Source: Streptomyces sp. MA5143a
GTDB taxonomy: Bacteria > Actinomycetota > Actinomycetes > Streptomycetales > Streptomycetaceae
Reading direction: 5' to 3'
Length of the DNA: 64,000 nucleotides
Assembly (NCBI RefSeq): GCF_900290235.1
Contig: NZ_OLMK01000009.1
Span: 310,001-374,000, forward strand
The position numbers and the translations under genes were made by a program. The first letter of the stretch is position 1. Every line of letters starts with the position of its first letter. Below the pieces are notes generated by a model, which was not told the DNA's origin, did not search any database, and worked only from the letters and a program-made list of their open reading frames with translations. Shown here in pieces: positions 38,382-54,668 of the stretch.

Positions 38382-39238
38382 CCACCCGTCATGAGGCGGT
38401 CATCCGGAGCACGCCCGCCGAGGTGACCCCGGAGCTGATCCAGGGCATGTGGGCATTGTTCGCGCGAGACCACCGGGAACGCGGCTACGAGGCACCGGTG
38501 GTCGTCACCGACGAGTCGTACGGCACTCATCCGAGGCAGCGGCTCGACGTCCATCGGGCGTTCGAGCCGCCGGCCGGCGCGCCGGTGCTGCTGTTCGCGC
38601 CCGGCGGCGGCTTCGTCGCCGGGGACAAGGACACCGCCGGTTTCCCGTTCTACCGCCATATCGGCCGCTGGGCGGCGGACCGCGGGCTCGTCGCCGTGAC
38701 CATGAACTACCGGCTCGCCCCGGAGCACCGATGGCCCGCCGGGGCGCAGGACGTCGCCGACGCGGTGGCCTGGGTGCGGGCGAACATCGCGGAGCACGGG
38801 GGCGATCCGGAGCGGATCGTGCTCGTCGGGCACTCTGCGGGAGCCGCCCACGTGGCCGGATACCTGGCCTGCCACGGCGGTACGCGACCCCGGGTGGCCG
38901 CGGCCGGCCTGCTGTCGGGCATCTACGACCTGCGTGAGCTCCGGCAGAACGAACTGCTGCTCTCCTACTACGGCTCCGATCCCGCCGAACTCCCCGCCCG
39001 CGAGGCGCTGCCCGGGCTGCGTGACTGCGCCATCCCGCTGCTGGCCTGTGTGGCCGAGCTCGACCCCCCGGACTTCCATGCCCAGGCCGAGGCGGTACGG
39101 GACTTCGTCTCCTCCTTCGTGCACGTCACGGGCCACAACCACATCTCCGAGATCGTCGCCCTCGGCGTCGACGACGCCCCGCTCGGCGAGCCGCTGCTGC
39201 GGTTCATCGAGGAATACGCCGTGAGGAGCACCGCATGA
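38378..39238 (+). CDS. Alpha/beta hydrolase (HSL/carboxylesterase type)
   Basis: A 286-residue hydrolase of the hormone-sensitive-lipase type. The oxyanion loop is FAPGGGF (the usual HGGG reads PGGG), the YRLAPEHRWPAG motif lies near 111-122, and the nucleophile is Ser153 in GHSAGAAH. Asp in AELDPPDFH and His in VTGHNHIS complete the triad. Kynurenine formamidase-like enzymes share this pattern. It overlaps the oxygenase by GTGA and the aldehyde dehydrogenase by ATGA, so it belongs to the same unit; it may remove ester-linked groups from lignin-derived compounds. Confidence 0.83.
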   Translation: MTTRHEAVIRSTPAEVTPELIQGMWALFARDHRERGYEAPVVVTDESYGTHPRQRLDVHRAFEPPAGAPVLLFAPGGGFVAGDKDTAGFPFYRHIGRWAADRGLVAVTMNYRLAPEHRWPAGAQDVADAVAWVRANIAEHGGDPERIVLVGHSAGAAHVAGYLACHGGTRPRVAAAGLLSGIYDLRELRQNELLLSYYGSDPAELPAREALPGLRDCAIPLLACVAELDPPDFHAQAEAVRDFVSSFVHVTGHNHISEIVALGVDDAPLGEPLLRFIEEYAVRSTA

Positions 39239-40758
39239 GCGCGATCCGCGCATCCGTCCTGGTCGGCGGCGAGGAGGTCACCACCGGGTTCGCGCCGGTG
39301 CTCAATCCGGCGCGGATCAGCGAGGTCGTCGGCGAGTTCGCCCTGGGCGGGGCCGGGGAGATCGACCTCGCGGCCCGCGCGGCGGCGTCCGCCTTCCCCG
39401 GCTGGGCCGCGCTGAGCCCGGCCGAGCGTGCCGCGTACCTGGTGAAGGCCGCCGACGCGCTGGAGGCCGAGGTTCCCGAGCTGGCCGCGCTGCTCACCCG
39501 CGAGGTGGGCAAGGTGCTGCACGAGTCGTACGGCGACGCGGGCGGCGCGCCCCGGCTGCTGCGGTACTTCGCGGGGCTGGCCGAGGACATCGCCGCCGCC
39601 GAGGAACCGGCCGAACTCCCTTGGCCGGGCCGCGCGGTGACCCGGCATGTGCCGATGGGCCCGGTCGGGGTCATCGCGCCGTGGAACACCCCGGTGTTCC
39701 TGGCGTTCATGTCGATCGGCCCGGCCCTGATGGCGGGCAACCCGGTGATCGTCAAGCCGCCGGAGGAGGCTCCGCTGGCCCTGAGCCGGGCCGTCGCGGT
39801 ACTCGCCGACGCCCTCCCGTCCGGAGTCGTCGGCCGCGTACCCGGGCTCGGCCCGGACGCGGGTGCCGCGCTGTCCGAACATCCCGCCGTGCGGCGGCTG
39901 ATGTTCACCGGCTCGGTCGCGACCGGGTCCCGAGTGCTGGCGTCCGCCGCGCCGACCATCAAGAACGTCACGCTCGAACTCGGCGGAAACGACCCGGCGT
40001 TGGTTCTGCACGACGCGGTCATCGACGAGACGATGCTCCGCGAGCTGGTCGCCGGCGTGTTCGGCCTCAGCGGGCAGATCTGCTACAACGTCAAGCGGAT
40101 CTACGTCCACCGCAGCCGCCTCGCCGAATTCACCGACGGGTTCACGGAGTTGGTCTCCCGGATCCGGGTGGGCGAGGGCAGCGACCCCCGGGCCACCATC
40201 GGGCCGGTCACCACCCGTGCCCAGTACCACCGCGTGCTCGCCCTGCGCGACGCCACCGCGGCCGCCGGCGCCAAGGTCACCGTCGTCGGCGAGCAGTTGG
40301 ACCCCGTCGGCTGGAACGAGGGCTACTTCATCCTCCCGAGCGTCGTCACGGACATCGCTCCCGACGCGCCGCTGGTCACCGAGGAGCAGTTCGGGCCCAT
40401 CGTGCCGATCCTGCCCTTCGACGACGAGGAGGAGGCCGTCCGGCTGGCCAACTCGACCGACTACGGCCTGGCCGCGTCCGTCTGGTCCGCCGACACCGAC
40501 CGCGCCTGGGCACTGGCCCGCCGCCTGGAGGCCGGGACCGCCTTCGTCAACGTCCACCGCGTAGGCGCCTCGCCGATGTCCGTGCCGTTCGGCGGCATCA
40601 AGCACAGCGGCATCGGCCGCACCCACGGCCTGACCTCCGTCCTGGAGTGCATGGAACAGCAGGCCGTGGTCACCTACGACGACCCGTCGCTGCTGCCCGG
40701 CACCGACCACTGGAACACCCTGCTGCGCGCCGCGGAAGGAGCCGACGACCATGCCTGA
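39235..40758 (+). CDS. Aldehyde dehydrogenase (probable vanillin dehydrogenase)
   Basis: A 507-residue NAD(P)-dependent aldehyde dehydrogenase. The catalytic Cys283 is in LSGQICYNVKR, the general-base Glu is in LELGGNDPALV near 247, and the late TEEQFGPIVPILPF block is present. In the operon context it would oxidise the benzaldehyde released by stilbene cleavage, for example vanillin to vanillate. The family is broad, so the substrate is inferred. It overlaps the hydrolase by 4 nt and the decarboxylase by 8 nt. Confidence 0.85.
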   Translation: MSAIRASVLVGGEEVTTGFAPVLNPARISEVVGEFALGGAGEIDLAARAAASAFPGWAALSPAERAAYLVKAADALEAEVPELAALLTREVGKVLHESYGDAGGAPRLLRYFAGLAEDIAAAEEPAELPWPGRAVTRHVPMGPVGVIAPWNTPVFLAFMSIGPALMAGNPVIVKPPEEAPLALSRAVAVLADALPSGVVGRVPGLGPDAGAALSEHPAVRRLMFTGSVATGSRVLASAAPTIKNVTLELGGNDPALVLHDAVIDETMLRELVAGVFGLSGQICYNVKRIYVHRSRLAEFTDGFTELVSRIRVGEGSDPRATIGPVTTRAQYHRVLALRDATAAAGAKVTVVGEQLDPVGWNEGYFILPSVVTDIAPDAPLVTEEQFGPIVPILPFDDEEEAVRLANSTDYGLAASVWSADTDRAWALARRLEAGTAFVNVHRVGASPMSVPFGGIKHSGIGRTHGLTSVLECMEQQAVVTYDDPSLLPGTDHWNTLLRAAEGADDHA

Positions 40759-41782
40759 CTACGCACGCATCGCCACCGAGGAGGCGTTCGCTCCGCAGGA
40801 ACTCATCGATCTGTGGCGGGACATGATCAAGCGGAACGACCACGGCGACCCGGGCTTCGACAGCCTGATGGGCTTCTACGTCAACCACCGCAGCGCACGC
40901 ACCGACTTCATCCTCGAACGCCTCCCCGACCTCGGCGAGCGACGGCTGGCCGACATGGACGCCGCGGGCGTCGACCGCCAGGTCATCTCGCTCACCTCCC
41001 CCGGCACGCAGATCCTGCCGCGGTCCGAGGCGGTCGCCATCGCCGAACTCGCCAACAACCGGCTCGCCGAGGCGATCCGCAGCCACCCCGACCGCTTCAG
41101 CGGCCTCACCGCCGTCGCCCCACAGGACCCGGAGCACGCCGCCCACGAGATCGAACGCGGCCATCGTGACCTGGGGCTGAAGGGCGTCATCATCAACTCG
41201 CACACCCACGGCGAGTACTTGGACGACCCCAAGTTCTGGCCCATCTTCGAGGCGGCCGAGGCCCACGACACCCCGATCTACCTCCACCCCAACACGCCTT
41301 CCCCCGCGATGATCGGGCCACTGCTGGAAGCGGGTCTGGACGGCGCGATCTACGGCTTCGCCGTCGAGACCGGCATGCACCTGCTGCGCATCATCACTTC
41401 CGGCGTCTTCGACCGCTTCCCACGCCTCAAGATCGTCGTCGGACACCTCGGCGAAGCCCTGCCGTTCTGGCTCTACCGCCTGGACTACATGCACGAGGCC
41501 ACCGTCCGCGCCAAGCGCTACCCCGTCATCAAGCCCCTCCAGCGCAAGGTCAGCGACTACCTGCGGGAGAACGTCTGGGTCACCACCAGCGGCATGCCCT
41601 GGGCCCCCGCGATCATGTTCTGCCGCGAAGTCCTCGGAGCCGGCCGGGTGCTGTACGCCATGGACTACCCGTACCAGTACGCCCCGGACGAGGTCACCGC
41701 CCAGGACGACCTCCCGCTCGGCACCGCCGGGCTGAAGGCCTTCTTCCAGACCACCGCCGAGAATCTCTTCCAGCTCCGCTGA
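40751..41782 (+). CDS. Amidohydrolase-fold decarboxylase, LigW-like (5-carboxyvanillate)
   Basis: A 343-residue member of the ACMSD/amidohydrolase decarboxylase family. The start RIATEEAF (Glu10/11 where other members have HxH), His179 in IYLHPN, His232 in VVGHLGEALPFW and Asp305 in YAMDYPYQY fit the Mn-binding pattern of LigW (5-carboxyvanillate decarboxylase) and gamma-resorcylate decarboxylase. EEAF, rather than EEHF, is closer to LigW. LigW turns 5-carboxyvanillate, from biphenyl lignin units, into vanillate, the substrate of the next enzyme. Other resorcylate-type acids are possible. The ATG at 40751 overlaps the ALDH end by 8 nt. Confidence 0.82.
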   Translation: MPDYARIATEEAFAPQELIDLWRDMIKRNDHGDPGFDSLMGFYVNHRSARTDFILERLPDLGERRLADMDAAGVDRQVISLTSPGTQILPRSEAVAIAELANNRLAEAIRSHPDRFSGLTAVAPQDPEHAAHEIERGHRDLGLKGVIINSHTHGEYLDDPKFWPIFEAAEAHDTPIYLHPNTPSPAMIGPLLEAGLDGAIYGFAVETGMHLLRIITSGVFDRFPRLKIVVGHLGEALPFWLYRLDYMHEATVRAKRYPVIKPLQRKVSDYLRENVWVTTSGMPWAPAIMFCREVLGAGRVLYAMDYPYQYAPDEVTAQDDLPLGTAGLKAFFQTTAENLFQLR

Positions 41783-41823
41783 GCCCAGAACGCCCAGAGC
41801 CCGCACCAATCCCAAGGGACGAC

Positions 41824-43107
41824 ATGAAATACACCGTCAGCAGCATGCGCACTCCACCGGAGGGCTACGCATGGAGCCGGTTCGGACAGCCCGAGTACAC
41901 CGACTGGCTCGACGAGAGCATGTCCTGGAAGGACGCCTGCTACATCGGGGACTGGTCGTTTCTGTGGCAGCACCGGATCACCGGCCCCGACGCGCTCACC
42001 ATGCTCGGCGACATCACCGTCAACACCCTCGCGAACTTCGCCCTCGGCCAGTCCAAGCACGCCATCCACACCAACCAGGACGGCAAGGTCATCCACGAGG
42101 GCATCCTCACCCGCTTCGGCGACGAGGAGTTCATGCTGCACGGCCGCGGTGGCTTCTGGGTCCGCAACTACCTGGGCACGACCGACTACGACGTCAAGGT
42201 GGAGCGGGACGACTGGTTCATCCTCCAGGTCTCCGGCCCCAATTCGGTGAAGCTCCTCGAAAAGGTCTCGGGCTCATCGAACCTGCGCGAGACCAAGTTC
42301 ATGTGGGTCAACTCCCTGAAGATCGCCGACCACGAGCTGTACGCGCTGCGGCAAGGCATGGCCGGGGAAATCGGCTTCGAGCTCCAGGGCCCCATGGCCG
42401 CCAAGCAGGACATCTACGACGCCATCCTCGATGCCGGTCAGGAGTTCGGGATCCGCAAGCTCGGTGCCCGCGCCACCATGATCAACCACCTGGAGGCGTG
42501 CTTCCCGACCATCGCCACCGACTACATCCCTGCCATCTTCGACGAGGACATGAAGAGCTACCGCGAGTTCTTCACCTCCTCCATGCCGTCCTTCGCGCAG
42601 CCGGCCTACATCGCCGGTTCCTACGACGGCGCCGAGATCAGCGACTACTACCGCAGCCCGGTGGAGCTGGGCTGGGCCCGCAACATCAACTTCGACCACG
42701 ACTTCCTGGGCCGCGAGGCGCTGGAGGCGGAGAAGGCCGCGCCCCGGCGCGTCATGCGGACCCTGGTGTGGAACGGCAACGACGTGGCGGACGTCTTCGC
42801 GTCGATGTTCCGACCGGGCGAGCACTACCCGTTCATGGACATGCCCCGTGACCAGCGCGGCTTCATGTGGGCGGACAAGGTCACCGCCGGCGACGACCTC
42901 GTTGGGATCGCCACCTCCCGCGGCTACAGCTACTACTACCGGCAAATGCTCTCGCTATGCACTGTCGACGTCGCGCACAGCGAGCCGGGCACCGAGGTCA
43001 CCGTCCACTGGGGAGAGCCCGGCGGACCGCAGAAGGCGATCCGGGCGACCGTCGCCGCCGCGCCCTACAAGCCCGACCGGCGCCGCGCCGACCTGCACCA
43101 AGCGTGA
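41824..43107 (+). CDS. ligM: Tetrahydrofolate-dependent aromatic O-demethylase, LigM/DesA-like
   Basis: The 427-residue protein has a GcvT-type (aminomethyltransferase) fold. Markers shared with LigM include IEDYY/ISDYYRSPVELGWARN, NFDHDFLGREALEAE near residue 295, LRQGMAGEIGFELQGP near 180 and YSYYYRQMLSLCTVD near the end. LigM moves the methyl group of vanillate or 3-O-methylgallate to tetrahydrofolate, giving protocatechuate or gallate. It is a little shorter than LigM of Sphingobium (about 470). The next gene, purU, releases tetrahydrofolate, which supports this role over dimethylsulfoniopropionate demethylation. Confidence 0.83.
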   Translation: MKYTVSSMRTPPEGYAWSRFGQPEYTDWLDESMSWKDACYIGDWSFLWQHRITGPDALTMLGDITVNTLANFALGQSKHAIHTNQDGKVIHEGILTRFGDEEFMLHGRGGFWVRNYLGTTDYDVKVERDDWFILQVSGPNSVKLLEKVSGSSNLRETKFMWVNSLKIADHELYALRQGMAGEIGFELQGPMAAKQDIYDAILDAGQEFGIRKLGARATMINHLEACFPTIATDYIPAIFDEDMKSYREFFTSSMPSFAQPAYIAGSYDGAEISDYYRSPVELGWARNINFDHDFLGREALEAEKAAPRRVMRTLVWNGNDVADVFASMFRPGEHYPFMDMPRDQRGFMWADKVTAGDDLVGIATSRGYSYYYRQMLSLCTVDVAHSEPGTEVTVHWGEPGGPQKAIRATVAAAPYKPDRRRADLHQA

Positions 43108-43131
43108 CCCCGGAAAGGAACGGCGACCGTC

Positions 43132-43989
43132 ATGTCCACCGCTTTCACTCTGAAGTTCGCCTGCGACGACCGGCCCGGCATCGTCAGCCGGGTCACCACG
43201 GGCCTCGCCGCGATCGGCGGCAACATCCAGGAGGCCAGCCACTTCAACGACCAGCTCACCGGCCGGTTCTTCTGCCGACTCGCCTTCACCGTCCCGGCCG
43301 GAGTGACCGAAACCACCGTCCGGGAGAACGTCTCCGACGGTCTCACCCAGCTGGCAGCCACTTGGTCGGTGACCGGGGACCGGTCCCGTATGCGGGTCCT
43401 CATCATGGCCTCGAAGCTCGATCACTGCCTCGCGGACCTTCTCTACCGGTGGCGTATCGGCGAGTTGCCTATGGATGTGGTCGGCGTGGTGTCCAACCAT
43501 CCCTGCGAGGTCTACCAGCACATCGACCTGTCCGACGTCCCGTTCCATCACCTGCCGGTGACCAAGGAGAACAAGCCGGAGCAGGAAGCCAAACTGCTCG
43601 CGATCGTCGACGAGTACGAGGTCGACCTCGTGGTCCTCGCCCGCTACATGCAGATCCTGTCGGACGAGCTGTCCGCCAGCCTGGCAGGCCGCTGCATCAA
43701 CATCCACCACTCGTTCCTGCCGGGCTTCAAGGGCGCCAAGCCCTACCACCAGGCGTACGAGCGCGGGGTGAAGCTGATCGGGGCGACAGCGCACTACGTG
43801 ACCGGCGACCTAGATGAGGGCCCGATCATCGCCCAGGACGTCGAGCCCGTCACCCACCGGGACACGCCCGAGCAACTGGTCCGCAAGGGGCGGGACATCG
43901 AGCGGCGCGTGCTGGCCAGGGCTGTCCGCCATCATCTGGAGAGCCAAGTGCTCCTCAACGGACGTACGACCGTGGTTTTTCCGGACTGA
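43132..43989 (+). CDS. purU: Formyltetrahydrofolate deformylase
   Basis: PurU hydrolyses 10-formyl-THF to formate and THF. The 285-residue protein has an N-terminal ACT domain (FTLKFACDDRPGIVSRVTTG) and a formyltransferase-type catalytic domain. The catalytic Asn/His are in CINIHHSFLPGFKGA near residue 190, and Asp is in YVTGDLDEGPIIAQD near 228. Placed after ligM, it would refill the THF pool that the demethylase uses. The ATG at 43132 follows AAAGGAA; a 24-nt gap separates it from ligM. A strong hairpin follows. Confidence 0.92.
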   Translation: MSTAFTLKFACDDRPGIVSRVTTGLAAIGGNIQEASHFNDQLTGRFFCRLAFTVPAGVTETTVRENVSDGLTQLAATWSVTGDRSRMRVLIMASKLDHCLADLLYRWRIGELPMDVVGVVSNHPCEVYQHIDLSDVPFHHLPVTKENKPEQEAKLLAIVDEYEVDLVVLARYMQILSDELSASLAGRCINIHHSFLPGFKGAKPYHQAYERGVKLIGATAHYVTGDLDEGPIIAQDVEPVTHRDTPEQLVRKGRDIERRVLARAVRHHLESQVLLNGRTTVVFPD

Positions 43990-44671: not shown

Positions 44672-45280
44672 TCACTCTTCAGGGGCCGCTGTCGACGCCA
44701 CGCCTCGCCAGACGAGTGGCAGCAGTCCTGCCGCCAGGGCGGTCTTGAGCGCGTCGGTGATGAGGAACGGGGTGACTCCCAAAGCGATGGCCTGTTGGGC
44801 GCCGAGGTGCAGGTCCATGGCCAGCCACACGGTTCCCGCCAGGTAGATGACTGCATTGCCCAGCGTCATCATCCCGACGGTTCCCAGGATGCCTCGGTCG
44901 TTGCCGCGGCGGGCGAGTTCGCCGACGAGGGCGGCGGCGAGGACGAAACCGACGACATAGCCGAAGCTGGGGCCGCCCAGGCCATGGGTGTGGTTGGCGA
45001 ACCAGGGCACTCCGGCGGCGCTGGTGGCGAGATAGACCAGCATGGCCGCCGCCCCGCGAACGGTACCGAGCGCGGTGCCGACCAGCAGGACCGCGAGGGT
45101 CTGCAGGGTGAAGGGCACGGGGCTGAGCGGGGTGTGCAGGGAGACCTGGGCGCAGAGGCCGGTGAGGCCCGCGCCGCCGACGACGAGAAGCGTGTTCCGC
45201 AGGAGGGCGGATCCGGGGACTAGGTCGGCAAGGACTCCGGGATGGGCGCTCGGTCGCAGGGAGGCGGTCGTGGTGGTCAT
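44672..45280 (-). CDS. bioY: Biotin transporter BioY
   Basis: BioY is the substrate-binding membrane subunit of energy-coupling-factor biotin transporters and can also work alone. The 202-residue protein has about six hydrophobic helices and the BioY marker segments AQVSLHTPLSPVPFTLQTLA, VYLATSAAGVPWFA, GGPSFGYVVGFVLAA and TLGNAVIYLAGTVWL. It is the last gene of the minus-strand operon that encodes a biotin-dependent carboxylase, 34 nt after the phosphatase stop. No ECF ATPase is adjacent. The placement suggests biotin supply for the carboxylase. Confidence 0.9.
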   Translation of the reverse strand: MTTTTASLRPSAHPGVLADLVPGSALLRNTLLVVGGAGLTGLCAQVSLHTPLSPVPFTLQTLAVLLVGTALGTVRGAAAMLVYLATSAAGVPWFANHTHGLGGPSFGYVVGFVLAAALVGELARRGNDRGILGTVGMMTLGNAVIYLAGTVWLAMDLHLGAQQAIALGVTPFLITDALKTALAAGLLPLVWRGVASTAAPEE

Positions 45281-45314
45281 GTCGGTACGGGTCCGTTCTC
45301 GATGGGGTGGGAGT

Positions 45315-46208
45315 TCAGGCGGGCAACAGGGTGGTCAGCCCGCCCACACCCTCGACGGTGAGATGCGGGCGCTGCTCCGTCGGCAGAGTGGCGAAGTGGT
45401 TCGCCGCGTGGATGCCGGTGGTCACCGCGATGCCGAGAGCCCCGGCACGCCGGGCCATCGCCATCTCCAGTTCCGGGTCGTCTCCGACGACGGCGAGGTG
45501 TTGCGGGGCGACGCCCAGTCGGCGCGCGGCGCAGCGCAGGCCGGTGAGTGAGGGCTTGCCCACGACCTGTTCGGTGACGCCCGTGACACTGCTGATCATG
45601 GCGCAGATGGCCCGGGACGTGCCCAGTGCTCGACCGTCGGCGCTGGCAAAGAACACCGACTGTGAGCTGCTGTACAGGGTGGCGCCTCCGAAGACGGCGT
45701 GGCAGGCGGCTTCCAGGTCGTCCATCGTGAACTCGCGGTACCAGCCGACGAGCACGGCGTCGGCTTCCGGCTTGCCCTTGGGCTCGACGATCTCGATGCC
45801 GGCTTGACGAAGCGGCTCCTTCAGGCCGTCGCCGCCGAGCACCAGCGCGCTGCGGTGTCCCATGTCCAGGAAGTGGTCGACGGCGCTGGTCGCCGGAGTG
45901 AGCATGGCGTCGTCCGGCAGGTCGAACCCGATGCGGCGCAGCGTCTCGGCGTAGGCCGACGGAGTACGCGTGGTGCCGTTGGTGAAGGTGACCCAGGGCA
46001 GGCCGCGGGCGGTGAGGTCGGCCGTGACTTCCAGGGCTCCGGGGAGGGGAGTGAGCCCGTGGTTGCGTCGGTCGCCCAGGACCAGCGTGCCATCCATGTC
46101 GAAGACGACGCCCCGCACGGCCCGCAGACGGCCAGTCAGGTCGTCGATCTCATCAGCCGTTTCGGCGGTTACGCAGGCGGCAGCCTCGTCAGACCGGTCG
46201 GCGGTCAC
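45315..46208 (-). CDS. HAD-superfamily phosphatase (NagD-like); candidate HpeD function
   Basis: A 297-residue HAD hydrolase of the IIA (NagD/4-nitrophenylphosphatase) type. The nucleophile motif is VVFDMDGT (Asp37, Asp39), motif II is VTFTNGTTR near 80, and motif IV is LAVVGDDPELEMAMA near 250. It overlaps the carboxyltransferase gene by 20 nt, so it belongs to the operon. In the Hpe pathway a phosphatase (HpeD) removes phosphate from the carboxylated phospho-aryl ketone; this protein is the best candidate here. A general sugar-phosphate phosphatase is the alternative. Confidence 0.85.
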   Translation of the reverse strand: MTADRSDEAAACVTAETADEIDDLTGRLRAVRGVVFDMDGTLVLGDRRNHGLTPLPGALEVTADLTARGLPWVTFTNGTTRTPSAYAETLRRIGFDLPDDAMLTPATSAVDHFLDMGHRSALVLGGDGLKEPLRQAGIEIVEPKGKPEADAVLVGWYREFTMDDLEAACHAVFGGATLYSSSQSVFFASADGRALGTSRAICAMISSVTGVTEQVVGKPSLTGLRCAARRLGVAPQHLAVVGDDPELEMAMARRAGALGIAVTTGIHAANHFATLPTEQRPHLTVEGVGGLTTLLPA

Positions 46209-47656
46209 GGTGCAGCTCCAGTCGGAAGTCGGGCCGGTCGAGAATCAGTTCGGGTGTCGCCGGGCGTGTCCGTAGGCCTTGGAGCAGGTCGAGCACCGGT
46301 TTGACGTCGGGGTTGTAGTGCTGTCGGGCCGGACCGGCGGCCACCATGGCGTCCACCTGCTCGGCGGGCATGGTGGCCCGTAGGAGCAGTTCCTCGTCGC
46401 TGATGCCGCGCGGGAGGCGCCGGCGCAGTTCTGCGACGGTGGGCGGGGGCGGTTCGGCGGCGAGTTCCTTCGCTCGTGGCCGGCCCAGGATGCGGTCGGC
46501 GACCTGCGGGTCCACGGGGGCGGTGGGGCGGCCGAAACTGCCCAGCACGTACCGGATCACCGGGTCGGAGACGTTCTCGTAGCGTTCGGTGCCGATGACG
46601 TTGTAGAGGGCCTGGGTGCACACCATCTGCGGGAACGGGGTGACCATGATGGGGTGGCCGAGCTCGGCGCGGACGCGGGTCACCTCCTCGATGACCGCGT
46701 CGAAGCGGTCGCTGAAACCGAGTTCGTCGAGCTGCCGGTGCAGGGTGGTCATGACGCCGCCTGCGACCTGGTGACGCATGAACGCGGCGTCGTAGTCCCG
46801 GGGGCCACCGACGGGCAGCCCCTCGGCCGCCGCCATGCCGTCGAAGTAGTCGGCGACCACGCCCAGCAGCCGGTCGTCGACGTCCACGGTGTGGCCGATT
46901 TCGCGCAGATTGGCCACGACCTGCTGGGCGTTGGGCAGGGACGTGCCGCCCGCAAGAGCCCCGCAGGCCACCTGAAGGGCCTGTACGCCCAGGTCGGCGG
47001 CCTTGAGGTAGGTCAGGCCCGGCAGACCGATCGTGCAGTGGGAGTGCAGCTCCAGCGGTGTGCCGACGAGCTTGCCCAGGACTGCCGGGATCAGTGTGGC
47101 GGCGCGTTCCGACGTCAGCAGCCCCCCAGGATCCTTGATGTAGACCCGGTCGATGTCCGGGCAGTCGGCCATCTGCGCCGCGAGCGAGGCGTAGTGGGCG
47201 TCGTCGTGGACGTCGCTGACAGTGAAGGTCAGTGCTCCGACGATCTCGGTGGCCCCGGCTGCTCGGATCATGCGGGCGGACTCGCGTACGGCGTCCATGT
47301 CGTGCATGGGGTCCAGGACGACGTAGCGGGTGACCCCGTTGGCCACCAGCCGGTCGTAGACCAGTTGCATGAACTCGGGGTGGGCGGCCTCCCAGGAGAT
47401 GAAGCGCAGCCCGGTGCCGATGAACTGCAGAGGGGTGTTGGGCATGGCGCGGTGCGTCAGCCGTATCCGCTCCCATGGGTCCTCGCGGTGGGTGCGCACC
47501 GCCATGCCCATGTGGGTGCTGGAGGTGTAGTCGAGGGCGCGGAAGCCGACCCGGTCCAGGACCGGCGCGATCTGGAGGATCTTGCCGGTGTCGAGTCCGG
47601 TGGCGCTCCACAGGCTCTGGTTGCCGTCGCGCAGCGACACGTCGACGAGCTGGATG

Positions 47657-47664
<8 letters not shown>
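46189..47664 (-). CDS. Biotin-dependent carboxyltransferase subunit (HpeC/A-type, PycB/OadA-like)
   Basis: A 491-residue TIM-barrel carboxyltransferase of the pyruvate carboxylase/oxaloacetate decarboxylase/transcarboxylase 5S family. Metal and catalytic sites: Asp13 in SLRDGNQSLW, Lys177 in YIKDPGG (the lysine that is carboxylated), and His207/His209 in LELHSHC. The normal acceptor in the family is pyruvate; in the Hpe/Acv systems it is the methyl group of a phospho-aryl ketone. It overlaps the biotin carboxylase by 8 nt and the phosphatase by 20 nt. No biotinyl domain is fused to it; that is supplied by the gene at 49018. Confidence 0.88.
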
Positions 47665-49017
<1,353 letters not shown>

Positions 49018-49021
<4 letters not shown>

Positions 49022-49512
49022 GGCGCCACCCCTGCCGCCTGTGTGTCGATGAACATGAGCACGGCACCCTGCTCGGCGAACTCTCCGTCGCCCAAGACGA
49101 TTTCGGCCACCGTGCCGGAGGCCTCCGCGTACACGGAGTTCATCAGTTTCATCGTCTCGACGATCCCGACGACCGTGGTCTCGGTGACCTCGTCCCCGAT
49201 CTCGACGAAGGGGGCCGCGCCGGGTTTCGGCGCCCGGTAGAAGGCACCGGGCAAAGGTGTAAGGACCCCGGTCAGACCCTCGCGGGCGGGCTCAGTCTGC
49301 TCGTCCGCAGCTGCCACGCCCTGGACCGCGGGTACTTCACGGCCATCGACCAGCACCGGTTCGGCTGTCGTGCGCGCGGACTGTGTCCACGCGCCGTCGT
49401 CGCCACGGCAAAGCGACAGTTCGAACCGACCCGTGCGCAGATGGAGGCGGTCGACCTCCATGCCGTCGATGATCCGCAGGATGTCCTGGACGTCCTCGCC
49501 GGTCAGGTTCAC
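49018..49512 (-). CDS. Biotin carboxyl carrier protein
   Basis: A 164-residue AccB-like carrier. The first 40 residues (LTGEDVQDILRIIDGMEVDR) match the N-terminus of AccB-type BCCP, followed by a linker with several Ala/Glu/Pro. The biotinyl domain has Lys122 in VETMKLMNSV (usual EAMKMMN) and the final VLMFIDTQ. The GTG at 49512 overlaps the kinase stop by GTGA; longer upstream starts would lie inside that gene. It carries the biotin between the carboxylase and carboxyltransferase subunits. Confidence 0.88.
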
Positions 49513-50609
49513 TTCGTACTCCCACCGGGGCCGGAGCCCGCGCCGCCGAGCAGCGACAGGACGTGGTCGAACGCCCTGGCCTTCGGCGCGGCCGTCGGGG
49601 CCTTCTCGCGGCTCGCCCAGACGGTCTCGGGGCGGCTTTGGAGCAGGTAGATGTTGTGGCCGGGTACGAGGTTGCGGGAGATCGCCCACTCGATGTCCTG
49701 GGGTGTTCCGTAGTGGGACTCGACCTGCCGGCCGAGCCGTACGAGTTCGTGGATCTCCTCGTCGGACAGGCAGGGTTCGTCCCGGAGGTATTCCGGTACG
49801 TCCTCTTCCAGCACACCGGAGCCGCTGGGGTCCATCCGGTGCTGTCGCAGCTTCGCCGAGACGGTACGGGAGCAGATGTCCCCGGTCACCTTGCTGACCA
49901 CGTACTTGTCGGGTGTCACGTCACCGCTGACGAGAGCGGACCCCAGGCCCCAGGACGCTTCCAGGGCGACGACCGAGCGGTCCCCGGTGAGCGGGCTGCG
50001 GGTGAACATGACACCGGCGCAGCGCGGGTCGATCATGCGCTGGACGACGACGGCCATGGCGAGGTCGTGTTCCGGCAGGCCGAGGCGACGCCGGTAGCTG
50101 ACCGACTCGACGCTGTAGAGGCTGGCCCAGCAGCGGCGGACGTTCTCGACGAGGGAGTCCTTGCCGCGCACCCACAGGTAGGTGTCCTGGAGGCCGGCGA
50201 AGCTGGCGTCCTCCGCGTCTTCGCTGGTGGCGCTGGAGCGTACGGCGACGGGGGCGGGCTCCCCCGGGGTGTCGGACTCGCTGTCCAGGTCGCGGTAGTG
50301 GCCGCGGATCGCCGCCGCCACCTCTTCGGGCAGTTCGGCCGCCTCGATGCGCTCCCTGACGGGTGTGACCACGCGGGTGATCGCCTCGGTGTCCTCGGAG
50401 TCCAGCGCCTCGATGGCGGTGCGGATCTCGCCGTCCGGGTCGAGGGCGGCGAGGAAGGCCTCGAAGGCCGTGGTGGTGACGACGTAGCCGGGCGGTACGG
50501 GCGCGCCGGCGAAGGTGAGTTCACCGAGGCTGGCGCCCTTGCCGCCGACCGTGGGCCGGTCCGACAGCCGCAGTTCCGCGAACCGGCGGACATGGGGTGA
50601 GGTGTTCAT
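49509..50609 (-). CDS. PEP-synthase-like ATP-binding subunit (HpeHI/AcvA-B-type kinase)
   Basis: The 366-residue protein is the N-terminal ATP-grasp domain of PEP synthase/pyruvate phosphate dikinase as a separate chain. It has VGGKGASLGEL near 22, VAVRSSATSEDAEDASFAGL near 122, PRCAGVMFTRSPLTG near 195 and the IEWAI..GHNIYLLQSRPE end. In phenylphosphate synthase and in the Hpe and Acv systems this domain phosphorylates the histidine of a partner, which passes the phosphate to a phenol. The partner is the next gene upstream. The ATG at 50609 has GGAG 8 nt before it; an ATG at 50624 is possible. Confidence 0.87.
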   Translation of the reverse strand: MNTSPHVRRFAELRLSDRPTVGGKGASLGELTFAGAPVPPGYVVTTTAFEAFLAALDPDGEIRTAIEALDSEDTEAITRVVTPVRERIEAAELPEEVAAAIRGHYRDLDSESDTPGEPAPVAVRSSATSEDAEDASFAGLQDTYLWVRGKDSLVENVRRCWASLYSVESVSYRRRLGLPEHDLAMAVVVQRMIDPRCAGVMFTRSPLTGDRSVVALEASWGLGSALVSGDVTPDKYVVSKVTGDICSRTVSAKLRQHRMDPSGSGVLEEDVPEYLRDEPCLSDEEIHELVRLGRQVESHYGTPQDIEWAISRNLVPGHNIYLLQSRPETVWASREKAPTAAPKARAFDHVLSLLGGAGSGPGGSTK

Positions 50610-50626
50610 TGTCGTGCTCCCCATGC

Positions 50627-52447
50627 TCAGTCGAGGATGGTGACGATGCCGCGGTCGCCGTCCACGCGCAGCCGCTGGCCGGTGGTGATCCGCTTGGTGG
50701 CGTGGCCGGTGCCGACGACGGCGGGCAGCCCGTACTCACGGGCCACGATCGCCGCGTGCGACATGGTGCCGCCGATGTCCGAGACGGCGGCCGCGATCTT
50801 GCCGAAGACCGGGCCCCAGCTGGGCGCGGTCACCGGACAGACCAGCACCTCGCCCTCCCGGACCTGGCCGATGTCGTTGGCGCTGAGCAGCACCCGGGCG
50901 GTGCCCTCGACGACGCCCGGCGAGGCGGCGAAGCCGCGCACCTCGTGATCGCCGTCCGCGGTCGGTGTGGACCAGGCCTGGATGGTCTCGGCGGTGATGC
51001 CCCACAGCATGCGGACCGCCGGGTCGTTGAGTGCCTCGGGGACGGGGCCCAGCGCGGGCGGCGGGGACCAGCCCGCGAGGGCTTCCAGCATCCGCTTGCG
51101 CTCAGCGACCGTCTCGCGCACGTGTGCCGAGCCCACCGGCTTGCTCCCGGCCGCCCAGGCGAGCATCACGTCGGTCAGGGCCTGGCCGACCTCGGTGTGG
51201 TTCAGCTGGAAGACGTCCTCGGCGTCGGCCAGGACACCCTGATCGCACAGCAGCTCGCCGAATTCGCGGACCTTGGCGAAGAACTTCGTGGTGAAGTAGT
51301 GCTCGCAGTAGAAGTTGTGGTCCTCCACGAAGGGGAACACCACCCGGGCCAGCCCGAGCATCTGGTCGAAGGCGGCCCGTTCCTCCTCCCCGGCCAGCAG
51401 GGAGCGGTACTCCTGGGCGATGCGCTCGCGCTCGGCCGTGAGCTGTTCGGTGGGGCGGTCGAGCAGCTCGCCCCTCCTGGCCTGGTCGACATAGCCGGGC
51501 AGCGCCGCGAACGGCACCGTGAGGTCGTCGTTCCAGCTGCGGTGGTGATGGTAGAAACCGGCGCCGGTCGACATGTTGAACCACGGCTCGCGCACGGCGT
51601 CCATCGCCTCCAGCCAGCTTCGGCCGCCGTCCCCGCGGGCGGCGAGCGCGGCCAGCACCTTGCCCGGCTCGCAGCCCTCGACGAAGAGATCGTCGACGCC
51701 GTACTCGACCGCCAGCTTCGCCAGCTTCTTCAGCTCGTCGTCCGGGCGGTAGAGGATGACGTCGATGCCCGCGACCATGCGGGCCACGTCCTGGTCGGGG
51801 ATCTCCGGGAACGACGTCTTGCAGAATTCGAAGAACACGACGTAGGCGCCGTAGCCGAGCATCAGGAACTCGGAGTGGTGGTGCCACATCTTGGAGTACA
51901 GGTCGATCAGCCGGTGGTAGTTCTCCCGGACGTAGTGGTTCTGGGCCACACCCTTGGCCTGGAACACGACCTCCGGGTCCTCGAACTCGGGCAGCCGGGG
52001 CACCTCGATCCGCTGCACCTCGTCGATCAGCGCGGTGATGCGGGCGACCCAGCCCTGGTAGAGCTCGTCCCAGTTCTCGTAGTAGTACCCCGCCCGCTCA
52101 CTGAACTCCGCGAGCCTGTGCTGGATCTCCTCGGGGTCGGTGACCGGATTGGCGGTGATGTAGACCCGGCCGTTGACGATGCGGTGCTCGATGCCGAGCG
52201 TGGTGGGGAAGACGAACATGCGCGCGGTGTTCGCGCCGATAGCGGTGTAGGGCGCCTCGGCAGTGATGGCGTCGAACGCGGGCATGGGCTCGGGGAAGTG
52301 CATCGCGTTGTAGAACCAGAACCGCTGGTCGTCCCCGGGCTGGAACCGGGTGTAGTACGGGTACATCGACGCCCAGCCTTCGGCGCCCGCGACGTCGGTC
52401 AGTTCCGAGGGCAGTGGGAAGAGGGGGGCGGGTCTGGCATCGTTCAC
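50627..52447 (-). CDS. PEP-utilising mobile-domain subunit (HpeHI/AcvA-B-type kinase)
   Basis: A 606-residue protein with the phosphohistidine mobile domain of PEP-utilising enzymes at its C-terminus (His564 in GGTMSHAAIVAREYG, then LPAVVGTGHATKRI). The first 500 residues lack the ATP-grasp domain and look helical, with Trp/Tyr/His-rich stretches (SKMWHHHSEF, FYHHHRSWNDDL). They probably form the phenol-binding catalytic part. With the ATP-binding subunit it would phosphorylate 4-hydroxyacetophenone or acetovanillone on the phenol oxygen. It lies 17 nt before its partner and 59 nt after the CoA ligase. Confidence 0.85.
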   Translation of the reverse strand: MNDARPAPLFPLPSELTDVAGAEGWASMYPYYTRFQPGDDQRFWFYNAMHFPEPMPAFDAITAEAPYTAIGANTARMFVFPTTLGIEHRIVNGRVYITANPVTDPEEIQHRLAEFSERAGYYYENWDELYQGWVARITALIDEVQRIEVPRLPEFEDPEVVFQAKGVAQNHYVRENYHRLIDLYSKMWHHHSEFLMLGYGAYVVFFEFCKTSFPEIPDQDVARMVAGIDVILYRPDDELKKLAKLAVEYGVDDLFVEGCEPGKVLAALAARGDGGRSWLEAMDAVREPWFNMSTGAGFYHHHRSWNDDLTVPFAALPGYVDQARRGELLDRPTEQLTAERERIAQEYRSLLAGEEERAAFDQMLGLARVVFPFVEDHNFYCEHYFTTKFFAKVREFGELLCDQGVLADAEDVFQLNHTEVGQALTDVMLAWAAGSKPVGSAHVRETVAERKRMLEALAGWSPPPALGPVPEALNDPAVRMLWGITAETIQAWSTPTADGDHEVRGFAASPGVVEGTARVLLSANDIGQVREGEVLVCPVTAPSWGPVFGKIAAAVSDIGGTMSHAAIVAREYGLPAVVGTGHATKRITTGQRLRVDGDRGIVTILD

Positions 52448-52506
52448 GGGGCTCTCCAGGGTGTGCGGCTCAGGCGTAGGGAGCGGGGATCCGAGGGTGG
52501 TGCGGC

Positions 52507-54582
52507 TCAGACGGTGGCGGTGGCCAGGGGGTAGTCGCGCTGGGTACGGGCGTAGCGGGCGAGGGCGTCGAGCGCGCGCGGGTCGGCGACCGCGCTCGGG
52601 TCGGCCGCCTGATCAACGGGGGTGCCGAGCAGGATGCGGCGCGCCGGCACCTCGAGCTTCTTGCCGGTCAGGGTGGTCGGGACGGCCGGGACCTGGATGA
52701 TGCGATCCGGCACGTGACGGGGGCTGTACTCGCGGCGGAGTCGGTCCCGGATCGTCTGCTGTAGGCCTTCGTCGAGGGTGGCGCCGTCGGTCAGGGCGAC
52801 GAACAGCGGCATGAAGAACTTCTCGTCCGGCAGGTCGAGGCTGACCACCAGGGCTCCCGTGACCTGGTCGAGGGCTTCGACGACCCGGTAGATCTCCGCG
52901 GTGCCGATGCGTACGCCCTGCCGGTTGAGGGTGGCGTCGGCGCGGCCGAGTACGAAGCAGCCGCCGCGAGCGTTGACCTTGAAGAAGTCGCCGTGTCGCC
53001 AGGCGCCCGGGAAGTCCTCGAAGTACGCACGGCGGTACCGCTCGTCCCCGTCCGGGCCCCAGAACGTGACCGGCATGGACGGCAGCGGCTCCGTGATCAC
53101 CAGCTCGCCGACCTCGTCCACGACCTGGCGGCCGTGTTCGTCGTAGGCGTACGCGGCGACCCCCAGCGAGCGGGCCTGCATCTCGCCGGCGTACACGGGC
53201 AGGGTGGGCACACCGCCGACGAAGCCGGTGCAGCAGTCGGTGCCGCCGCTGCCGGTGGCGATCCACAGGTCCGCCTTGACGTTGCCGTAGAACCAGGCGG
53301 TGCACTGGGGCGACACCGGTGAGCCGGCGGGCATGACCGTGCGCAGGGCGGACAGGTCGTAGCGTTCGCCGGGGACGATGCCGGCCTTGGTCATGAGGTC
53401 GACGTAGGCGGGGCTGGCGCCGAAGAAGGTGGTCCGGGTGTCCTGCGCGATCCGCCACAGCACGTCCGGCTCCGGGTGGGCGGGGTTGCCGTCGTAGAGC
53501 ACCGGGCAGGCGCCGACCAGCAGGGAGCTGATCAGGAAGTTCCACATCATCCAGCCGGTGGTGGTGAAGAACAGCGGCCGGTCGCCCTCGCGCAGGTCCA
53601 TGTGGAAGGTCTGCAGCTTCAGCTGTTCCAGCAGGATGCCGCCGTGCCCGTGGATGATCGCCTTGGGCAGTCCGGTCGTACCGGAGGAGAACAGCACCCA
53701 CAGCGGGTGGTCGAAGGGGACATGCTCGAATTCGAAGTCTTCGGCGGCAACGGGCGGGTGGTCGAGGACCTCGTCCCAGCGCAGGCCGCCGACGGCCAGC
53801 GGCTCGTCGTCCCCGTCGTCGAGGACGGGAAGGTGGATCACCTGCTCCAGGCCGGGAAGCGCGTCGGCGATGCGGCGCACCTCGTCCCGGCGGTCGAAGG
53901 TCTTTCCGCCGTAACGGTAGCCGTCGACGCAGAAGAGGACCTTCGGCCTGAGCTGGCCGAACCGGTCGATGACGCCTCGCGACCCGAAGTCGGGGGAAGC
54001 GCTCGCCCATACGGCCCCGACGGCCGTCGTCGCGAGCATCGCGATCGCGGCCTGGGGCACGTTCGGCAGATATCCGCAGACCCGGTCGCCGGGGCGTACG
54101 CCGAGCCCGCGCAGCCGGGTCGCCAGGATGCGTACCCGGCCCGCGAAGTCCTCCCACGGAAGGCCGACGGGAGCGGCGCTCTCGGAGCCGAACACCACGG
54201 CGTCGGTGCCCGACCGTTCGTTTCGCAGGACGTGCTCGGCGTAGTTCAGCCGCGCCCCGGGAAACCACCGCGCCCCCGGCATGTCCCGGCCGTCGAGCAC
54301 CGAGGAGTACGGGGTCGTCGACCGAATGCCGAAGTAGTCCCACAGGGCGCCCCAGAATCCCCCCAGGTCGGTGACGGACCAGTTCCACAGCTCGTCGTAG
54401 CCGTCGAACCGCAGCCCCCGTTCCCGGGACAGCCAGTCCGCGAACCGCGTGACATTGGCCTCCGCGACCCGCCGCGGGCCGGGCGTCCACAGCAGCTCGC
54501 CTTCGGCCACCACGGCGGCCCTGCCGGCTGCGCCGTGTGCCCGACCAGTGGCAGGGAAGCCCCCTGCTGCCTCGACGGTCAT
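52507..54582 (-). CDS. Acetoacetyl-CoA synthetase-like beta-keto acid CoA ligase
   Basis: A 691-residue adenylate-forming enzyme of the acetoacetate-CoA ligase type. It has the N-terminal DYFGIRST..DMPGARWFPGARLNYAEH block, the AMP/ATP motif LFSSGTTGLPKAII near 295, and the C-terminal Gly-rich RQGVRIGTAEIYRVVE with the catalytic Lys in TLTGKKLEVP near 655. Acetoacetate is a beta-keto acid; in this operon the likely substrate is the aroylacetate made by carboxylating and dephosphorylating an aryl methyl ketone. No thiolase is present in the operon. The ATG at 54582 follows GGAGGCGAC. Confidence 0.83.
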   Translation of the reverse strand: MTVEAAGGFPATGRAHGAAGRAAVVAEGELLWTPGPRRVAEANVTRFADWLSRERGLRFDGYDELWNWSVTDLGGFWGALWDYFGIRSTTPYSSVLDGRDMPGARWFPGARLNYAEHVLRNERSGTDAVVFGSESAAPVGLPWEDFAGRVRILATRLRGLGVRPGDRVCGYLPNVPQAAIAMLATTAVGAVWASASPDFGSRGVIDRFGQLRPKVLFCVDGYRYGGKTFDRRDEVRRIADALPGLEQVIHLPVLDDGDDEPLAVGGLRWDEVLDHPPVAAEDFEFEHVPFDHPLWVLFSSGTTGLPKAIIHGHGGILLEQLKLQTFHMDLREGDRPLFFTTTGWMMWNFLISSLLVGACPVLYDGNPAHPEPDVLWRIAQDTRTTFFGASPAYVDLMTKAGIVPGERYDLSALRTVMPAGSPVSPQCTAWFYGNVKADLWIATGSGGTDCCTGFVGGVPTLPVYAGEMQARSLGVAAYAYDEHGRQVVDEVGELVITEPLPSMPVTFWGPDGDERYRRAYFEDFPGAWRHGDFFKVNARGGCFVLGRADATLNRQGVRIGTAEIYRVVEALDQVTGALVVSLDLPDEKFFMPLFVALTDGATLDEGLQQTIRDRLRREYSPRHVPDRIIQVPAVPTTLTGKKLEVPARRILLGTPVDQAADPSAVADPRALDALARYARTQRDYPLATATV

Positions 54583-54653
54583 GTCGCCTCCTCGCGTCAT
54601 GGGAGGAACGGTCTCCGACGAGCCGGGACGCGAGCAACAGTTCCCTGCTAGCT

Positions 54654-54668
54654 TTTCACCTGGTGAAA
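54654..54668. promoter_or_regulatory. Perfect 15-bp palindrome, likely IclR operator
   Basis: TTTCACC-T-GGTGAAA at 54654-54668 is a perfect inverted repeat in the 120-nt gap between the minus-strand CoA ligase (start 54582) and the plus-strand iclR (start 54703). A further half-site GGTGAAA lies at 54717-54723, just inside iclR. IclR proteins bind 12-15-bp palindromes, so this is the likely operator for both promoters. Confidence 0.75.

What the first reader, a model, noticed from the sequence alone, without database searches (positions are those of the whole stretch)
44672..54582. Complete Hpe/Acv-type operon for hydroxyaryl methyl ketones in Streptomyces
Eight minus-strand genes in one run encode a beta-keto acid CoA ligase, a two-chain PEP-synthase-like kinase, a three-chain biotin carboxylase, a HAD phosphatase and BioY. 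Seen: GTGA overlaps between kinase, carrier and carboxylase genes, and overlaps of 8 and 20 nt downstream. Known: the Hpe pathway of Rhodococcus rhodochrous GD02 and the Acv pathway of Sphingobium SYK-6 convert acetovanillone and 4-hydroxyacetophenone by phosphorylation, then biotin-dependent carboxylation; such pathways are rare. Inferred: this operon does the same in Streptomyces, with added CoA activation and in-operon biotin uptake.
Basis: partly seen in the sequence, partly recalled or inferred. Interest (0 to 1): 0.88.

Follow-up and report, generated by a model that had tools for sequence, protein, structure and literature searches.

The report
Streptomyces Acv/Hpe-type hydroxyacetophenone carboxylation operon
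A Streptomyces carries the genes of a recently described route by which bacteria phosphorylate and then carboxylate lignin-derived hydroxyacetophenones to use them as food: a known pathway in a new host, beside a second operon that looks made for lignin fragments.

Summary
The eight-gene run is real, with the overlaps described. It encodes an Hpe/Acv-type pathway: two-chain phenol dikinase, three-chain biotin carboxylase, HAD phosphatase and beta-keto-acid CoA ligase. The kinase falls with carboxylase-linked kinases (GD02 HpeI, SYK-6 locus), away from carboxylase-less homologues, and nearer SYK-6 than a GD02-clade locus. In related loci a single UPF0261 protein stands in for the dikinase: 47 of 86 have the dikinase, 28 UPF0261, none both. 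Verdict: known pathway, in a genus where I found no report.

The parts
52507..54582 (-). AMP-forming beta-keto-acid CoA ligase (HpeE-like; acetoacetyl-CoA synthetase family)
   Evidence: TIGR01217 811.2 bits, cut-off 520.9; PRK03584 915.4 bits, cut-off 639; start at 54582 from the alignment
50627..52447 (-). dikinase chain with substrate-binding and swivel domains (HpeH/AcvA-like)
   Evidence: PEP-utilisers mobile domain; phospho-His motif SDIGGTMSH; trees
49509..50624 (-). dikinase ATP-grasp chain (HpeI/AcvB-like)
   Evidence: PPDK_N 8.8e-104; best solved-structure match 9goj, 2.2e-82, which I take for GD02 HpeI; tree
49018..49512 (-). biotin carboxyl carrier chain
   Evidence: Biotin_lipoyl 8.6e-14; ETMKLM motif and GTGA start
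47657..49021 (-). biotin carboxylase chain
   Evidence: Biotin_carb_N, CPSase_L_D2 and Biotin_carb_C
46189..47664 (-). carboxyltransferase chain (pyruvate-carboxylase-like family, phosphophenylethanone type)
   Evidence: PYC_OADA 1.3e-24; 56% to SYK-6 locus L189; tree
45315..46208 (-). HAD-IIA phosphatase (HpeD-like)
   Evidence: Hydrolase_6 6.6e-21; a homologue lies within 4 kb of the carboxyltransferase in 41 of 47 dikinase loci
44672..45280 (-). BioY biotin transporter chain, 34 nt downstream, not a conserved part
   Evidence: BioY 4.8e-36; found in 1 of 86 related loci, S. torulosus L064
54703..55515 (+). divergent IclR regulator (MhpR / PcaR-PobR-like)
   Evidence: HTH_IclR and IclR_C; PRK09834 and TIGR02431 below cut-off; IclR homologue near 17 of 47 dikinase and 14 of 28 UPF0261 loci
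54654..54668 (.). inverted repeat TTTCACC-A-GGTGAAA between regulator and ligase, candidate IclR operator (not tested)
   Evidence: exact in window and two near relatives, imperfect in three more Streptomyces
36966..38381 (+). neighbouring convergent operon: RPE65 / lignostilbene-carotenoid dioxygenase family
   Evidence: RPE65 1.4e-98; best NCBIfam model apo-carotenoid dioxygenase, below cut-off; lignostilbene dioxygenase structures at 2.6e-40
38378..39238 (+). alpha/beta hydrolase of the convergent operon
   Evidence: Abhydrolase_3 7.1e-22
39235..40758 (+). aldehyde dehydrogenase of the convergent operon
   Evidence: Aldedh 2.4e-134
40751..41782 (+). LigW-like 5-carboxyvanillate decarboxylase
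   Evidence: PDB 4inf 9.1e-128
41824..43107 (+). LigM/DesA-like tetrahydrofolate-dependent O-demethylase
   Evidence: PDB 5x1i 2.5e-62; below the NCBIfam equivalog cut-offs
43132..43989 (+). PurU formyltetrahydrofolate deformylase
   Evidence: TIGR00655 325.6 bits, cut-off 285.95

Best explanation
The operon runs an Acv/Hpe-type pathway for 4-hydroxyaryl methyl ketones (4-hydroxyacetophenone, acetovanillone, perhaps acetosyringone). The two-chain dikinase phosphorylates the phenol via a phospho-His; the three-chain biotin carboxylase carboxylates the methyl of the phosphorylated ketone at the cost of one ATP; the HAD phosphatase removes the phosphate, giving a hydroxyaryl beta-keto acid; the ligase makes its CoA ester. 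A hydrolase encoded elsewhere (candidate G000:C83:142197-143063) would split it to acetyl-CoA plus vanillate or 4-hydroxybenzoate, which enter the protocatechuate branch. The divergent IclR protein is the likely regulator. Shown here: gene content, order, motifs, clade. Inferred: every reaction in this strain, the exact substrate, induction, and the role of the distant hydrolase. The order of steps is taken from GD02; for SYK-6 another order has been proposed (PMC13101465, legend of Fig. 1).
For: Gene content and motifs. ATP-grasp chain tree: 18 carboxylase-linked rows, including GD02 HpeI, the SYK-6 locus and the window, split from 7 carboxylase-less rows at 99/96; window with SYK-6 in a 14-row group at 100/99. 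Identity of the window to SYK-6 locus L189: kinase chains 55 and 56%, carrier 43%, biotin carboxylase 62%, carboxyltransferase 56%, phosphatase 43%. Characterised activities: HpeHI, HpeCBA and HpeD of GD02 in vitro (PMC9618137); the SYK-6 genes expressed in RHA1 convert acetovanillone, 4-hydroxyacetophenone and acetosyringone (PMC13101465). Downstream: protocatechuate dioxygenase beta chain over cut-off, PobA-like hydroxylase at 489.2 bits, below the 538.7 cut-off. Independent link to O-demethylation: L055 has kinase to ligase beside formate-THF ligase, FolD and a LigM-like demethylase, and L056 has a LigM-like match on the same side.
Against: Window HpeI is only 44% identical to GD02 HpeI, no nearer than the seven carboxylase-less homologues are to GD02 (41-51%), so identity alone does not fix the substrate; the clade argument does the work. 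One carboxylase-less row, L195, comes from a contig of 7,053 bases, so its lack of a carboxylase is less sure. No HpeF in the operon. No expression or growth data. The ring substituents cannot be read from sequence. That L189 is SYK-6 rests on its 4,199,332-base chromosome, a length I recall for SYK-6; that 9goj is GD02 HpeI is my inference from its length and the published HpeI crystal structure, the PDB name being only 'phosphoenolpyruvate synthase'.
Confidence: 0.85

Rival explanations
1. Same chemistry, but the physiological substrate is another hydroxyaryl ketone made in the neighbourhood, for example a ketone released from a lignin dimer by the convergent dioxygenase operon, rather than free acetovanillone or 4-hydroxyacetophenone.
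For: Convergent operon with dioxygenase, aldehyde dehydrogenase, LigW- and LigM-like genes; the same operon is linked to hpe in S. stelliscabiei; LigW homologues at 73% and 76% (the latter over residues 108-342) on other contigs of two hpe-bearing actinobacterial MAGs, G688 and G684; plasmid pBAR1 has a carotenoid oxygenase and aldehyde dehydrogenase just upstream of a hydroxyacetophenone-type cluster.
Against: The five other hpe-bearing Streptomyces tested have LigW matches of only 37-41%, and two hpe-type genomes (G685, G686) have none at E<=1e-40, so hpe works without it.
Confidence: 0.1
2. A phenol or cresol kinase pathway (CreHI or phenylphosphate-synthase type) that happens to sit beside an unrelated carboxylase.
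For: Carboxylase-less homologues are about 45% identical to the window pair, not far below the GD02-clade locus at 48-49%.
Against: Trees place the window with carboxylase-linked kinases at 99/96; the kinase-carboxylase-phosphatase order recurs across phyla. CreHI itself was not in the trees.
Confidence: 0.03
3. A pyruvate-, acetone- or acyl-CoA-type carboxylase with acetoacetate activation, unconnected with aromatics.
For: Carboxyltransferase and ligase fall in pyruvate-carboxylase and acetoacetyl-CoA-synthetase families; the ligase passes the acetoacetate-CoA ligase cut-offs.
Against: The carboxyltransferase is 56% identical to the SYK-6 locus but scores only 287 bits against the pyruvate carboxylase subunit B model, cut-off 402; the closest characterised homologue of GD02 HpeE is also of the acsA2 type.
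Confidence: 0.02

Closest known systems
Acv pathway, acvABCDEF, Sphingobium lignivorans SYK-6
   Same: Six homologous genes in the same order; nearest characterised relatives found of the kinase, biotin carboxylase and carboxyltransferase chains (55-62%; carrier and phosphatase 43%).
   Different: SYK-6 has no CoA ligase in the operon (PMC9618137, PMC13101465); the window has one, plus an IclR neighbour and BioY.
Hpe pathway, hpeHICBADEF, Rhodococcus rhodochrous GD02
   Same: Kinase, carboxylase, phosphatase and CoA ligase; same logic.
   Different: Ligase first instead of after the phosphatase; no HpeF in the operon; HpeI 44% identical and in another subclade.
MarK pathway, Novosphingobium aromaticivorans DSM12444
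   Same: Described as very similar to Hpe/Acv (PMC13101465); probably the UPF0261-type clusters of my, whose carboxyltransferases are up to 71% identical to the window's.
   Different: Started by a single-component kinase; the window has the two-chain dikinase. The MarK paper is not held, so MarK = UPF0261 is my inference.
XccABC carboxylase, Aromatoleum aromaticum EbN1
   Same: Homologue of HpeCBA, involved in anaerobic catabolism of 4-hydroxyacetophenone (PMC9618137, passage).
   Different: Not compared here; its sequence was not reached.
CreHI 4-cresol kinase and phenylphosphate synthase
   Same: Same two-chain dikinase family (PMC12167813).
   Different: Carboxylase-less homologues in Streptomyces fall in a separate clade; they were not shown to be CreHI.

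Membership tests
Hpe/Acv pathway | two-chain small-molecule dikinase with phospho-His motif, in the carboxylase-linked clade | tested here: met
Hpe/Acv pathway | three-chain biotin carboxylase with PYC-type carboxyltransferase, adjacent to the kinase | tested here: met
Hpe/Acv pathway | HAD phosphatase directly downstream | tested here: met
Hpe (GD02) operon | beta-keto-acid CoA ligase in the operon | tested here: met
   at the 5' end, not after the phosphatase
Hpe (GD02) operon | HpeF beta-ketoacyl-CoA hydrolase in the operon | tested here: not met
   eight genes only; a candidate amidohydrolase is on contig C83. SYK-6 also encodes the last two steps elsewhere (PMC13101465)
Hpe/Acv pathway | kinase acts on acetovanillone / 4-hydroxyacetophenone and carboxylase only on the phosphate | not testable with these tools
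   needs enzymes and substrates
CreHI / phenylphosphate synthase | kinase groups with CreHI or PpsAB | tested here: inconclusive
   the window is apart from carboxylase-less homologues, but CreHI and PpsAB sequences were not reached
MarK pathway | single-component kinase in place of the dikinase | tested here: not met
   the window locus has the two-chain dikinase, and none of the 20 neighbouring proteins scanned is UPF0261
Biotin uptake as pathway part | BioY conserved in related operons | tested here: not met
   1 of 86 loci

The most novel reading that the evidence does not exclude
The two convergent operons of the window form one catabolic island for lignin dimers: the RPE65-family dioxygenase splits a lignin-derived stilbene, the aldehyde half is handled by the aldehyde dehydrogenase, LigW-like decarboxylase and LigM-like demethylase, and, where the stilbene carries a methyl group, the other half is a hydroxyaryl methyl ketone that the Acv/Hpe operon consumes. 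That would parallel bisphenol A breakdown, where a methylstilbene gives 4-hydroxybenzaldehyde and 4-hydroxyacetophenone (PMC9733184), with a carotenoid oxygenase and an aldehyde dehydrogenase beside a ketone cluster on pBAR1. For: the linkage survives a rearrangement in S. stelliscabiei. Against: five other hpe-bearing Streptomyces lack a close LigW, and the dioxygenase is best matched by an apo-carotenoid model. My earlier boldest reading, UPF0261 as an alternative hydroxyacetophenone kinase, is no longer offered as new: MarK is published. I now hold that reading at about 0.9 instead of 0.55, but as known.
Probability: 0.12. Interest if true: 0.6.

Novelty: new member of a known kind. Interest (0 to 1): 0.4.

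Why it matters
It extends an unusual carboxylating route for lignin-derived hydroxyacetophenones to Streptomyces, and provides actinobacterial enzyme sets nearer to the SYK-6 type than to GD02, useful for building lignin-converting strains: the three sets tested so far in RHA1 differ up to about 97-fold in activity (PMC13101465). The comparison shows how often the first enzyme of this pathway has been exchanged while the carboxylase stayed (at least 5 changes on my tree).

Tried and rejected
Rejected: cresol/phenol kinase reading (window apart from carboxylase-less homologues); pyruvate-type carboxylase reading; BioY as a pathway gene; the amidohydrolase 40751-41782 as the missing HpeF, my first thought: it matches LigW 5-carboxyvanillate decarboxylase. 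My paper searches had missed the MarK work because they used the family names UPF0261 and Tm-1 and because that paper is not held; the references and the introduction of PMC13101465 showed it. The interest score went from 0.5 to 0.4 for this reason.

Led nowhere or was redone: alignment A1 had four rows on the wrong strand and was replaced by A2. The first kinase trees used untrimmed rows; the trimmed ones are those I rely on, where row L057 of the alpha chain was dropped as short. No kinase over 48% identical to GD02 HpeI in 348 genomes of the order sampled from a Pseudonocardia centre; one at 60% in 200 genomes of the family of the Thermomonosporaceae MAG, but where hpeEF would be that locus (L188) has, judged by eye, formate-dehydrogenase-like genes, so it is not proven to be Actinomadura macra. 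EbN1 XccABC, CreHI, PpsAB, CouO, HpeF and MarK sequences were not reached. Whether the carboxylase-less Streptomyces kinases are CreHI was not tested; 6 of the 9 full-length 45-46% hits were looked at in wider context. No structure was predicted. The one passage of PMC9233362 that names acetovanillone lists it as a medium component.
Full report
OBSERVATION. The carrier starts at GTG 49512. The ligase starts most likely at 54582: a GAGGAGG stretch precedes it in six aligned Streptomyces loci, while the codon at 54600 varies (ATG 2, GTG 3, CTG 1). Catalytic motifs are present; SDIGGTMSH fits the T/SXXGGXXXH rule, with Met two places before the His as in HpeH (PMC12167813, structural section).

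WHAT IT IS. The Hpe pathway of Rhodococcus rhodochrous GD02 (PMC9618137: abstract, two of three parts of Results, Discussion, note and passages) phosphorylates 4-hydroxyacetophenone or acetovanillone (HpeHI), carboxylates the phosphate (HpeCBA, one ATP to ADP), dephosphorylates (HpeD) and is proposed to use a CoA ligase (HpeE) and hydrolase (HpeF). SYK-6 has the first six genes, acvABCDEF. The window has those six in the same order, with the ligase first and no hydrolase. PMC13101465 (abstract, introduction, section on three pathways, passages, first part of references) notes that another order of reactions was proposed for SYK-6, and that the SYK-6 kinase prefers acetosyringone while MarK and HpeHI prefer acetovanillone; in its own resting-cell assays all three sets preferred acetovanillone and 4-hydroxyacetophenone.

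PHYLOGENY. On trimmed alignments the ATP-grasp chain splits into 18 carboxylase-linked rows (window, GD02 HpeI from PDB 9goj, the SYK-6 locus and others) and 7 carboxylase-less rows, at 99/96; the window sits with SYK-6 in a 14-row group at 100/99, GD02 with L188 at 100/99. A quick tree of the other chain agrees, without GD02, whose HpeH was not reached, as does the first, untrimmed careful tree. Identities of the window to the SYK-6 locus are 55, 56, 43, 62, 56 and 43% for the six proteins in operon order; to the GD02-clade locus L188 48, 49, carrier not found, 53, 46 and 41%. L189 is called SYK-6 because its contig is 4,199,332 bases, the chromosome length I recall.

DISTRIBUTION. In a sample of 295 genomes of the genus, 13 have a kinase alpha homologue at E<=1e-30: 3 (own included) are over 90% identical, 9 are full length at 45-46%, one is partial. 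Named Streptomyces carriers of the carboxyltransferase at 92-98% are S. torulosus, S. stelliscabiei, S. caniscabiei and S. ipomoeae. The S. caniscabiei copy is decayed: the first 116 residues of IclR, the ligase and kinase alpha have no match, and the phosphatase is matched in two pieces. Beyond Streptomyces the fetched loci come from four phyla. A published survey found kinase and carboxylase genes together in 52 of 836 cases (PMC13101465); my set, being the nearest relatives of one carboxyltransferase, is not comparable with that.

MISSING STEP AND LOWER PATHWAY. P. putida YC-AE1 has an Amidohydro_2 protein directly after the phosphatase of its cluster. The window's genome has a 64% homologue at C83:142197-143063, between ORFs that read, by eye, as a short-chain dehydrogenase and an acyl-CoA synthetase, like a hydroxycinnamate cluster. 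That CouO/HpeF are of this family is recalled, not from a call. Protocatechuate dioxygenase is present over cut-off; a PobA-like hydroxylase scores below it.

NEIGHBOURHOOD. Convergent with the operon lies a six-gene plus-strand run (36966-43989) with overlaps of 4, 4 and 8 nt among its first four genes: RPE65-family dioxygenase, alpha/beta hydrolase, aldehyde dehydrogenase, LigW-like decarboxylase, LigM-like demethylase, PurU. In Novosphingobium, LsdD, FerD and LigW turn a beta-5 lignin stilbene into vanillin and ferulate (PMC11323797, passages), so this may be a beta-5 dimer module; but the dioxygenase's best NCBIfam model is an apo-carotenoid enzyme, below cut-off. In S. stelliscabiei the same six genes at 99-100% lie on the other side of hpe, beyond the IclR gene; in five other hpe-bearing Streptomyces the best LigW matches are 37-41%; two hpe-bearing actinobacterial MAGs have LigW homologues of 73 and 76% on other contigs. 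Separately, L055 carries kinase to ligase plus formate-THF ligase, FolD, a cyclodeaminase-domain protein and a LigM-like protein, an independent link to folate-dependent O-demethylation.

KINASE SWAP. In 28 of 28 the UPF0261 gene lies on the same strand directly before the carrier match. Pfam was run on three of them. A phosphatase homologue is within 4 kb of the carboxyltransferase in 25 of 28 UPF0261 loci, and 4.8-9.4 kb away in the other three; in dikinase loci 41 of 47 within 4 kb, two more at 4.7 and 5.6 kb, four without a match. An IclR homologue is near in 14 of 28 and 17 of 47. The state changes at least 5 times on the carboxyltransferase tree of 100 rows, a quick tree with some weak forks. 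Outside the 86, such clusters are on plasmid pBAR1 of Sphingomonas bisphenolicum AO1, with pobA, a carotenoid oxygenase, an aldehyde dehydrogenase, a thioesterase and a beta-keto acid cleavage enzyme, and on a plasmid of P. putida YC-AE1, a bisphenol A degrader reported to remove 4-hydroxyacetophenone fully in 24 h, data not shown there (PMC9733184, passages); the same passages list 4'-hydroxyphenyl acetate and hydroquinone as intermediates, which points to another route. I had read this as a new kinase. The introduction of PMC13101465 says that a very similar pathway in N. aromaticivorans starts with MarK, a single-component kinase (Hall et al. 2025, not held). Since UPF0261 clusters are frequent in Novosphingobium, and a UPF0261 structure of unstated function, 9mpy, is close to these proteins (1.5e-134), UPF0261 is very probably the MarK family. 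What remains of mine is the count of exclusive occurrence and of exchanges on the tree; the MarK paper may hold the same.

NOVELTY. For the window: a new member of a known kind. 'Streptomyces' occurs 0 times in the three Hpe papers listed; titles listed (12 of 19 papers in the last) show no hpe or acv operon in Streptomyces. Supplements, the MarK survey and the SYK-6 paper were not seen, so an earlier listing of Streptomyces homologues is possible.

Noticed in passing
L069 6820-8109; L075 5617-6864; L116 6928-8202 and 25 further loci: UPF0261 protein directly upstream of the carrier gene in place of the kinase pair, never together with it in 86 loci; very probably the published single-component kinase MarK (paper not held).
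   Followed up: partly
window 36966-43989 (+), PucR-type regulator 35539-36864 (-): Lignin-type operon: RPE65-family dioxygenase, hydrolase, aldehyde dehydrogenase, LigW-like, LigM-like, PurU; possible beta-5 dimer module, linked to hpe also in S. stelliscabiei but on the other flank.
   Followed up: partly
L055 1350-16449: Hpe-type genes beside formate-THF ligase, FolD, a cyclodeaminase-domain protein, a LigM-like protein and an MTHFR-like protein in a 3 Mb genome of the same phylum.
   Followed up: partly
G254:C1 311350-313167 and 11227666-11229483: Two equally scoring copies at mirror-image distances from the chromosome ends, so the operon probably lies in a terminal inverted repeat.
   Followed up: no
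L066 6542-12310: S. caniscabiei copy is decayed: first part of IclR, ligase and kinase alpha without a match, phosphatase matched in two pieces.
   Followed up: partly
L130, L131, L132, L133: Four loci from different sphingomonads have identical carboxyltransferases over the aligned part, pointing to recent transfer.
   Followed up: no
L200 10588-11915: pBAR1 has a thioesterase plus a beta-keto acid cleavage enzyme where others have ligase plus amidohydrolase: the back end of the pathway seems swappable too.
   Followed up: no
PMC9618137 Table 1 versus L188, L189 and window: The paper names HpeB carboxyltransferase and HpeA biotin carboxylase, but in the loci compared here the biotin carboxylase precedes the carboxyltransferase, and the paper's masses (HpeB 49.3, HpeA 57.4 kDa) would fit the reverse; I use functional names.
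   Followed up: no
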